Origin: Vitis vinifera
Taxonomy: Eukaryota; Streptophyta; Magnoliopsida; Vitales; Vitaceae
NCBI RefSeq assembly: GCF_030704535.1
Contig: NC_081813.1
Coordinates: forward strand, 5,355,001 to 5,419,000
DNA: 64,000 nt
Reading direction: 5' to 3'
The stretch's first letter is position 1; each line of letters opens with the position of its first letter. A program made the translations under genes and the position numbers. Shown here piece by piece: positions 55,901 to 58,900 of this stretch. Under the pieces are notes generated by a model. The model saw nothing but the letters and a program-made list of their open reading frames with translations. It made no database searches and was not told the DNA's origin.

Positions 55901-58900
55901 ATGGCCATGGATATTGCATTCTCAGAAGAAGAGGTGGCTATCGACGAGGGCCTTGGGTACCCGAAAGCCTACGCGAAGCTCTGTTGGAATCGCGGTCTTG
56001 GTCCATACAGCCACGGCCCTCCTTTCACCTTCACGCCTTATATTCTGCAGCAACATGAGGTAAGTGAATTACACTCCTTGAATCTCTCTGTTTAGTTGCT
56101 GAGAAAGCTGAGTAAAAGAAAAGGCAGGAAAATTCTTTATTTGGATTTTTATCTTGTTTGGTTTAAGACAAAATGAGCATGTCAACTCAGAAGGGCTAAA
56201 ATCTAAATTGTTTACCAAGCATAGTTAAGAGTGGTGGTTTTTAAATTCTTGGATCAGTGGTACTGAGATTCATAATTTTAATTTCCATTTTTTCTCTTCA
56301 TTTTCCCAGTAATCAAATGGAGAATTTATGGGCTTTCTTTTTCTTTGAGTGTGTTGTTGAAGTTCTGAGAATGAGCTTACAAGGAACTTTTGCAGGCTTA
56401 ATTGATCATCATATGTTCGTCTGAAAATGAATTCTTCTTGAAGTACAGTTCTTATAGACTAGAGACTTTATTTTGAGCATGGGCTTTCTGTAAAACTCCA
56501 CCTGCCCTTGGTTGTGTCTGCAATTTTCCATATTCTAATGTTATGGAAAGTGATTTCTGGGAGTCTCTGTTTCTTGTTTACAGATTTGATGTGAATTTCT
56601 TTTCTTTGTTATGTTGATGGGCGTCAAATTTTTTGTTGGCAGGCTCTGAGAGCAAGGGAATTGGATCAGATGTTCCCAATTATAGATCCCAAAGCGAAAC
56701 CAACCACCAAGCCCAAGATTTTTATCAGTCTCCTCTGGAAACAACTCAACCACCTAGGGTAACTGCTTGAATTTTGTTCTGGGTATCTCAAAAAATAATG
56801 AAACTTTTTATACTTTAATCAAGAGACATCTAAGTTCTGTTTCTGATTGATATCTTAGGAATGCTGGCTTTGACCCTGCAATATTTCGGGTTGATCCTTA
56901 TGGCAATGTTCTATATTATCATGCTGATTCGGCCTCCCCGCTAGCCTGGGATATAGATCATTGGTTTCCCTGCTCAAGTAATTGATCAATCACTGGGCAT
57001 CTGCTTCTCTCTCTGTGCCTTTGTTTCTGTCATAACTTTTGACCATTCCTCGGGAATTGCAGGAGGAGGATTAACTGTCCCCAGCAATTTGAGGATATTG
57101 CAGTGGCAAGTGTGCAGAAGGAAGCATAACAAGCTGGAATTTCTAGTTCCATGGTGGGATCTTCAATTAGGCATCTCCATTAACCAGTTCTTATCGATAT
57201 TTGCTTCTTCTAACTCGGACTTCAGGTCGATATGCTTCACTTCCTTAGGTGTCTAATGCATTTCCATATAGAAACACGGTTGTGATGATTTATCTAGTTT
57301 TACAATATTGCAGGCACAGGGCATTTTCATTGCTGTTCTTTGAAGGGGAAAATGAAGAATTAAATGATTCACATACAGTAGAATCGCATACTTTTCCACA
57401 CCATTTCATTGAATCCAAAGAGCAAGTAGGCCTTGCTCCTGCTGCTGTTGTTTTATCTCGAAGAGAATCCCGGGATCCTTCACCAGCCCTGAAATCCCTG
57501 GATTTCAATAGGCAGCCAAGGCCAAACTCCCCTATAGTTGGTTAGTACCCAAAAAATCGTTTTCTTCTTATGATTCTGAGAGCAATTTTGAACTTCACAG
57601 TAAAGATCTTTTAATCATTTGATTGTCACAGCTGCCAGGAAAATGAAACATAGTGTCTCCAAAGAAAATGAAAACCCAGACATGGTTACCAACCCCTATC
57701 AAGCCATTGTCATGGCCAGAGATTCCCTGAAACAAAGAGAAGAAGCAGCAAAAATGCAAGGAGAAATACAGAAATTGGATGATGAAGTGAACGACTTGAA
57801 GCAAAAGAATGAAGAGGAAAAGGTCTTGATTCAAGACTTGGAATACCAGCTCATAAAGCGTAGGAGACGGGCCGAAAAGTGTAGGCGCCTAGCAGAGGCA
57901 CAATCTTCATATAGGATCATGTTAGAGAAGATGATTCGAGATGCCATGCACCAGTAAGATTAACTACAAGAACCCATTTTCAGTTTGTCTTTTTTTCTTT
58001 TTTAAGATTCAAAACTGTCAAATTTATGAATTTTCTGTTGCAGGAGTGTCATCTACAAGGAACAAGTGAGACTGAACCAGGCAGCAACAAATGCTCTCAT
58101 GGCAAGGCTTGAAGCACAGAAGGCTATTTGTGATGCCTCGGAGAAGGAACTCCACAAAAAATTCAAACAAAGGGATGAGATTGAGTACCAGATAAGACCC
58201 GAGTGGGAGCAAGGAAGGAAGAGGTCGAGAATGGATGACAACTTACATGAAGACGGAGACAACAAAACTGTTTTGTGTTTACCAGGAATCAAGCCAAGTA
58301 GTGCACTTTCACACAAGGAACTGAGGGTGTTTCTAGAGGAGGAGCAGAAAGCATCTGAGGCTGCCTTGTCTCTGATTGAGGAAAGAAAGCAAGAAGAAAT
58401 AGAAGAGGAACCTGCAGAAAATGTGAATAGTAGGGAGAAGCCTGAGGAGACACGTCTCTCCATTGTTGCAGTGGAGGATGAAAACACAATTGAGGAGAGG
58501 CTTCAGGCATTAGAAATTGGAGAAGGGAAGAACTATAACACCCAATTCCCGGTTCTTCGAGAACCGGAAATAGAGGAGGACGAAGAGTGCAGGAAGCAGC
58601 GTGGGAAAGGAAATGTAGAGAAGTGGCTCCAGATGCTGTTAGAGAACACTCAAGAAGAAGGGTTTGGCTCTAACAATGCCCAGGAACATGAAACAAGCAG
58701 GACTGATGAAGTAATCAGACAACTAAATCTCAAGTATCCCTACAACCAGACAAAGTTCCCAGAATCAGAGAACAAGCAGCAAAAAATCCGGGGGAGGAAA
58801 GATCAATGGAAGGGGAAGGAACCGATTGTTGAGAAGGATGGTAATAGTAATACAGTGTCTGAGAACCTTCCCAACCTACTTCCTTCAGATAAAAGCTACG

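What the first reader, a model, noticed from the sequence alone, without database searches (positions are those of the whole stretch)
56899..57160. HNH-nuclease-like core in a plant coiled-coil protein of unknown function
Residues 102-155 follow the bacterial HNH pattern: a YGN strand, W-(E/D)-I-D-H, P-C-S-R-G-G, S-N-L-R-I-L-Q-W, then K-H-N-K. The putative metal/catalytic H126, N140 and H153/N154 are all kept, which argues for a working or recently working fold. The core is spread over exons 3 and 4 with the intron exactly before R-G-G, and is linked to a long coiled coil and a charged tail. I know no described function for this plant family.
Basis: partly seen in the sequence, partly recalled or inferred. 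Interest (0 to 1): 0.75.

Follow-up and report, generated by a model that had tools for sequence, protein, structure and literature searches.

The report
Plant HNH-nuclease-like protein, altered active site
A plant gene of unknown function carries a genuine relative of small bacterial DNA-cutting (HNH) enzymes joined to a predicted coiled coil, but one of its key metal-holding residues is replaced by cysteine, so it may bind rather than cut DNA.

Summary
A seven-exon gene (55901-59199, +) encodes 753 aa; residues about 85-156 are homologous to small stand-alone HNH proteins of bacteria, phages and plasmids. A profile from 14 of these, without the plant row, gives the plant 48.5 bits (E 2.6e-13); the best of 6000 shuffles gives 11.0, and exons 3 and 4 score separately. 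Pfam and NCBIfam find nothing.

The ungapped register LQW-xx-[N]-xxK puts C149 there; that position is Asn in 157 of 160 bacterial or phage rows and by spacing matches Cas9 N863 and colicin E9 H127. H153/N154 lie four and five residues further on. D125, H126 and N140 are kept. A "working" nuclease is not supported: likeliest is a disabled or weakened HNH domain kept as a nucleic-acid-binding module on a coiled-coil protein. A rebuilt Cys149/His153 metal site remains possible, since His153 falls where colicin E9 has H131.

No plant sequences were held, so conservation is untested. Upstream lies a broken duplicate without the HNH exons.

The parts
55901..56059 (+). coding exon 1 (residues 1-53), acidic N-terminus, no known domain
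   Evidence: Pfam none
56643..56758 (+). coding exon 2; carries W85, which aligns with the Trp near the start of the bacterial proteins
   Evidence: alignment A4
56859..56977 (+). coding exon 3: first half of the HNH core (FRVDPYGNVLYY...AWDIDHWFPCS)
   Evidence: exon-3 ORF alone 22.5 bits to the bacterial profile
56956..56961 (+). codons of D125 (metal-ligand position) and H126 (general-base position)
   Evidence: roles by analogy to Cas9 D839-H840 (PMC6706240, passages)
57063..57225 (+). coding exon 4: second half of the HNH core (GG...SNLRILQWQVCRRKHNK) and the stretch after it
   Evidence: exon-4 ORF alone 17.3 bits
57086..57088 (+). codon of N140, the middle Asn of HNH
57113..57115 (+). 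codon TGC of C149, at the third catalytic (metal-ligand) position
57314..57540 (+). coding exon 5: linker
57632..57953 (+). coding exon 6: start of the heptad-rich helix, basic run KRRRR at 337
58044..59199 (+). coding exon 7: rest of the helix and Glu/Lys-rich tail, stop TAA
45191..45355 (+). broken duplicate of the gene: exon 1 copy, 68% identical in protein, four codons missing
50469..50630 (+). broken duplicate: exon 2 copy (tblastn piece, 46% identical), running into a second copia gag stretch; no HNH exons found after it

Best explanation
SHOWN: residues about 85-156 (93-156 in the profile alignment) are a member of the HNH (beta-beta-alpha metal) superfamily, closest among what could be searched to a sporadic group of mostly 90-125 aa stand-alone HNH proteins of bacteria, phages and plasmids. 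SHOWN: of the active-site positions D-H / N / N(or H), the plant keeps D125, H126 and N140 and has Cys149 in place of the last metal ligand. INFERRED: a bacterial or phage HNH cassette entered a plant-lineage genome, was split by an intron and fused to a coiled-coil, charged protein. INFERRED: without the Asn/His ligand the usual single Mg2+/Mn2+ site is lost or weak, so the domain cuts poorly or not at all, and is kept as a nucleic-acid-binding module held as a dimer or oligomer by the coiled coil, probably in the nucleus (basic runs such as KRRRR; acidic N-terminus unlike a transit peptide).
For: Independent 14-row bacterial profile: plant 48.5 bits, best of 6000 shuffles 11.0, both exons hit separately, next of 1063 window ORFs 7.0. 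tblastn of a 145-aa piece in 7.3 Gb of plasmids: E 3e-5 to 4e-5 to Roseovarius and Roseobacter proteins annotated HNH and to a Leptolyngbya protein annotated hypothetical. L144: 39% identity over 80 residues, pairwise E 8e-19. PHROGs: 5 of 5 families hit by the 145-aa piece are HNH/endonuclease VII, best E 2.6e-4. In the predicted fold of L144 (pLDDT 84.4) the DH strand, second strand and helix with N74 are in HNH order; its listed PDB neighbours are mostly HNH nucleases. Third position: Asn in 157 of 160 rows, Cys in none but the plant. In SpCas9 N863, nine residues after N854, holds the metal; N863A virtually lost gene editing, though the authors add that repaired nicks contribute to that loss (PMC6706240, passages).
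Against: One plant sequence only: C149 may not be conserved. Keeping D125, H126, N140 and the PxSRGG/SNLR motifs would be odd for a long-dead enzyme. Nucleic-acid binding, dimerisation and nuclear location rest on motif-level inference. Pfam, NCBIfam and a PDB sequence search with the plant protein find nothing, and with the whole 753 aa PHROGs falls to E 0.0046, with 1 of 3 hits not HNH. Foldseek E-values for the bacterial model are weak (best 0.45), and the plant domain itself was not folded. The residue tally leans towards conservation, because many rows were fetched with patterns that ask for such residues. The coiled coil was scored only with a crude heptad measure.
Confidence: 0.55

Rival explanations
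1. An active nuclease with a rebuilt metal site: C149 and H153, four residues apart on the helix like H127 and H131 of colicin E9, bind a softer metal such as Zn2+ together with D125, and H126 activates water.
For: Spacing: the plant has N140, C149 (+9) and H153 (+13); colicin E9 has N118, H127 (+9) and H131 (+13), with roles for H102, H103, N118, H127 and H131 described in PMC2816704 (passages). The plant shows His at 153 together with Cys at 149; His at 153 is otherwise found in 1 of 160 rows. D125, H126 and N140 are kept.
Against: No Cys at this position in any of the 160 bacterial or phage rows. A Cys ligand would suit zinc but not Mg/Mn chemistry (general knowledge). One plant sequence only.
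Confidence: 0.22
2. The HNH fold is kept only as a structural or protein-binding part of a coiled-coil scaffold, with neither cutting nor nucleic-acid binding.
For: Third ligand lost; long branch of the plant row, 1.29 changes per column; large remainder of the protein without a known enzyme domain.
Against: The DH and N positions and a basic run RRK are kept, which a purely structural role would not require.
Confidence: 0.2
3. Chance resemblance or a wrong gene model.
For: Pfam and NCBIfam give no hit at E up to 10, and phmmer against PDB gives none.
Against: Shuffle control and two separate exon hits; significant tblastn matches in a 7.3 Gb collection; all introns GT-AG and frame kept over 7 exons.
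Confidence: 0.02

Closest known systems
Small stand-alone HNH proteins, e.g. IMG/VR locus L144, Roseobacter denitrificans pTB1 WP_011655404.1 (L139), Leptolyngbya NIES-3755 BAU16037.1 (L138)
   Same: Colinear over the domain: W near the start, (F/Y/W)RxD..G, (G/A)W-x-(I/V/L)-DH, PxS(R/K)GG, NL, then xxRxK or alike; D, H and middle N kept; no CxxC zinc ribbon.
   Different: The bacterial ones are short and stand alone and have Asn at the third position; the plant has Cys149, intron-split coding, about 80 extra residues in front and a predicted coiled coil with charged tail behind.
SpCas9 HNH domain
   Same: Same spacing by residue numbers: D-H, +14 Asn, +9 third residue (D839-H840, N854, N863; PMC6706240, passages).
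   Different: Cas9 has Asn at the third position and is part of an RNA-guided enzyme.
Colicin E9 DNase
   Same: HNH; third residue at +9 and a further residue at +13 (H127, H131; PMC2816704, passages); top Foldseek neighbour of the bacterial model, at E 0.45.
   Different: Colicin has His at both; the plant has Cys and His. Colicin is a bacterial toxin domain of different overall sequence.
WSL9 of rice (Os03g0169800)
   Same: Nuclear plant gene annotated with an HNH domain; its authors failed to detect nuclease activity (PMC7354284, passages).
ZRANB3 HNH (PDB 5mkw)
   Same: A eukaryotic HNH domain reached by the 15-row profile A4 (E 9.2e-5).
   Different: Part of an annealing helicase (name from the PDB entry); Pfam finds no helicase domain in the plant protein.

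Membership tests
HNH / beta-beta-alpha-metal superfamily | significant profile similarity over the motif | tested here: met
   48.5 bits, E 2.6e-13 among shuffles and window ORFs; PHROGs HNH families; but none in Pfam or NCBIfam
HNH / beta-beta-alpha-metal superfamily | metal-ligand residue (D or H) followed by the general-base His | tested here: met
   D125 H126
HNH / beta-beta-alpha-metal superfamily | middle Asn about 14 after the base His | tested here: met
   N140
HNH / beta-beta-alpha-metal superfamily | third residue His or Asn nine after the middle Asn | tested here: not met
   C149
HNH / beta-beta-alpha-metal superfamily | beta-beta-alpha fold | tested here: inconclusive
HNH nuclease (enzyme) | metal-dependent nucleic-acid cleavage | not testable with these tools
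   needs protein
Stand-alone GW(E/D)(I/V)DH HNH group described here | colinear W...RxD...W-x-x-DH...P...GG...NL..L | tested here: met
   A4 alignment; L144 39% over 80 aa
Stand-alone GW(E/D)(I/V)DH HNH group described here | short stand-alone protein | tested here: not met
   753 aa with other regions
CxxC zinc-ribbon HNH | CxxC pairs around the motif | tested here: not met
   the only Cys between residues 86 and 190 are C130 and C149
WSL9-like plant HNH proteins | sequence similarity to Os03g0169800 | not testable with these tools
   no plant proteins held

The most novel reading that the evidence does not exclude
A plant nuclear coiled-coil nuclease whose HNH site has been changed by evolution from Asp-His/Asn/Asn to Asp-His/Asn/Cys+His, giving a Cys/His-bound metal HNH enzyme of bacterial mobile-element ancestry with its own role in plant DNA or RNA metabolism.
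Probability: 0.15. Interest if true: 0.75.

Novelty: new variant of a known kind. Interest (0 to 1): 0.42.

Why it matters
It gives a testable hypothesis for a plant protein that neither Pfam nor NCBIfam names: a domesticated mobile-element HNH domain, probably disabled, on a coiled-coil carrier. If plants keep C149 and H153, it would be an HNH active-site variant not seen in the 160 bacterial and phage rows compared here; if they keep Asn or His instead, it would be a plain nuclease candidate in a plant gene of unknown function. Whether plant databases already flag it as HNH could not be looked up here.

Tried and rejected
Pfam, NCBIfam and a PDB sequence search with the plant protein found nothing. 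A viral-contig scan with the plant protein matched 7 stretches, none confirmed. No whole genome is held for the window. The scan of prokaryote genome contigs gave 175 relatives, of which the best 80 were kept; all 80 bear bacterial record titles. So conservation in plants could not be tested. A tree of 44 rows left the plant row on a long branch in an unresolved position, so the donor lineage is open. The idea that the window might hold a second HNH copy was rejected: in the upstream copy only exon 1 and exon 2 pieces were found, with copia-type sequence in intron 1 and after exon 2. Nine of ten allowed paper searches were run. Seven looked for this plant family or for HNH proteins in plants; the listings shown held no paper on it, but the lists were capped (20 of 79, 10 of 55,549, where none of the ten held the HNH term, 15 of 62), so absence from print is not shown. 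WSL9 came and was read as passages. The other two searches were for active-site roles; passages of PMC6706240, PMC2816704 and PMC10063541 were read, the last not used. A table in PMC3482391 (passages) lists an HNH class with CxxC motifs that occurs in viridiplantae; this protein lacks such motifs. A Septu reading of the Roseobacter gene pair was weak (PtuB E 0.004) and was left.

Full report
Gene. On the + strand seven exons (55901-56059, 56643-56758, 56859-56977, 57063-57225, 57314-57540, 57632-57953, 58044-59199) join with GT-AG borders into a 753-aa protein. The claimed core lies in exons 3 and 4. The intron between them falls after the first base of the R132 codon, so it is just inside, not exactly before, R-G-G.

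Is the HNH match real? Pfam and NCBIfam, both at E up to 10, give nothing, and phmmer against PDB sequences gives nothing. PHROGs gives five families for a 145-aa piece (residues 42-186), all HNH or endonuclease VII, best E 2.6e-4; for the whole protein three families, best E 0.0046, two of them HNH or endonuclease VII. tblastn of the piece against phages gives 110 records at E up to 10, best E 2e-2; of the 40 listed, 33 are annotated HNH endonuclease, 3 hypothetical and 4 have no annotation. Against plasmids it gives 17 records at E up to 10, best E 3e-5 and 4e-5, 10 of 17 annotated HNH. From the plasmid hits, from a motif scan of IMG/VR (5 loci) and from an alignment-based scan of IMG/VR (9 loci; some on the same contigs as those) I took 14 short HNH proteins and aligned them with the plant. 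A profile from the 14 without the plant gives residues 51-200 of the plant 48.5 bits (E 2.6e-13) and the whole protein 45.6. The exon-3 ORF alone gives 22.5 and the exon-4 ORF 17.3. The best of 6000 shuffles gives 11.0, and the next of 1063 window ORFs gives 7.0. L144 shares 39% over 80 residues with the plant. The similarity runs from about W85 through FRVDPYGNVLYY to KHNKL, not only over the HNH motif.

The relatives. Strong matches (E 1e-12 or better) were found in 3 of 398 genomes from the phylum of G005 and 10 of 296 from that of G004. In the phylum of G002 1 of 398 reached that level and 9 of 398 reached E 1e-7. Only a capped number of candidates per genome was scored, so these are lower bounds. 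Other members lie on plasmids and in IMG/VR contigs. In Roseobacter pTB1 the gene follows an exonuclease SbcCD subunit D gene and an AAA family ATPase gene.

The active site. In SpCas9 (PMC6706240, passages) D839, H840 and N863 are catalytic, with N854 auxiliary: spacing H to N 14, N to N 9. The plant has D125-H126, N140 (14 on) and C149 (9 on). In colicin E9 (PMC2816704, passages) H102 and H127 hold the metal, H103 is the base, N118 assists, and H131 takes part in the proposed general acid. By spacing C149 is at the ligand position and H153 at the H131 position. In 160 distinct bacterial or phage rows (profile hits at E 1e-3 in 183 loci, identical rows merged, the plant set apart), the ligand position is Asn in 157, His in 1, Arg in 1 and a gap in 1; D is kept in 158, the base His in 157, the middle Asn in 159; position 153 is His in 1. 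Many of these rows were fetched with patterns that already ask for such residues, and L136 and L149 come from one contig, so the tally leans towards conservation.

Fold. AlphaFold2 on L144 with 10 relatives gave pLDDT 84.4, pTM 0.71; D50-H51 lie in a strand, N65 just before the next strand, N74 in the following short helix. Foldseek against PDB gave 78 matches at E up to 10, 50 listed. By title most are HNH enzymes (colicins E9 and E7, pyocin S2, Cas9, Cas8-HNH and others; that McrA, ScoMcrA and TasH carry HNH domains is partly recalled; 6itw and 8fzz are not such by title). None reaches E 0.001, and the best is 0.45. A profile of A4 matches 43 PDB sequences at E up to 1, best the Cas8f-HNH fusions (5.7e-5) and ZRANB3 (9.2e-5). 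The second structural aligner was not available.

The rest of the protein. A crude heptad score is highest for stretches starting at residues 281-320; the tail is Glu/Lys-rich; basic runs include KRRRR at 337. This fits a coiled-coil, possibly nuclear protein, as inference only.

Evolution. A 44-row tree gives the plant a long branch with no supported sister, so the donor is open. An upstream copy with the promoter region, exon 1 and exon 2 pieces (45191-45355, 50469-50630) is broken by a copia element with 246-nt direct repeats 99% alike at 45360 and 49784, flanked by GAATC on both sides, and runs into another copia gag stretch. No HNH exons were found there.

Judgement. Homology to HNH nucleases is as good as shown. 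A working nuclease is not. I favour a weakened or dead HNH domain kept for binding nucleic acid (0.55). A rebuilt Cys/His metal site is the bold alternative. Plant orthologues, which were not held here, decide.

Noticed in passing
window 45360-50029: Copia LTR retrotransposon with 246-nt direct repeats about 99% identical and GAATC on both flanks (target duplication), inserted in intron 1 of the broken duplicate gene.
   Followed up: partly
window 44960-50630: Truncated tandem duplicate of the HNH gene: promoter region, exon 1 and exon 2 pieces only.
   Followed up: yes
window 3067-6261, 26416-29619, 31495-34530 (-): Three long ORFs with DUF2921 domains (Pfam: transmembrane E3 ligase/DUF2921) in one window, apparently a gene cluster.
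   Followed up: no
window 16367-17893 (+): Mutator-like transposase pieces.
   Followed up: no
window 40966-42411 (-) and 61347-63998 (-): A MOT1-type molybdate transporter ORF and a DYW-type PPR ORF.
   Followed up: no
L160 1-3900 (Roseobacter denitrificans pTB1): Small HNH gene directly behind an exonuclease SbcCD subunit D gene and an AAA family ATPase gene with PADLOC matches to LmuB (E 3e-12), PbeC and DndD ATPases; Roseovarius W115 has the HNH behind an SMC family ATPase. Possible defence operon.
   Followed up: partly
L181, L182, L173: Members of the short HNH group with changed catalytic residues (DN; DY with Arg at the third position; GH), so changes at this site also occur in bacteria.
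   Followed up: no
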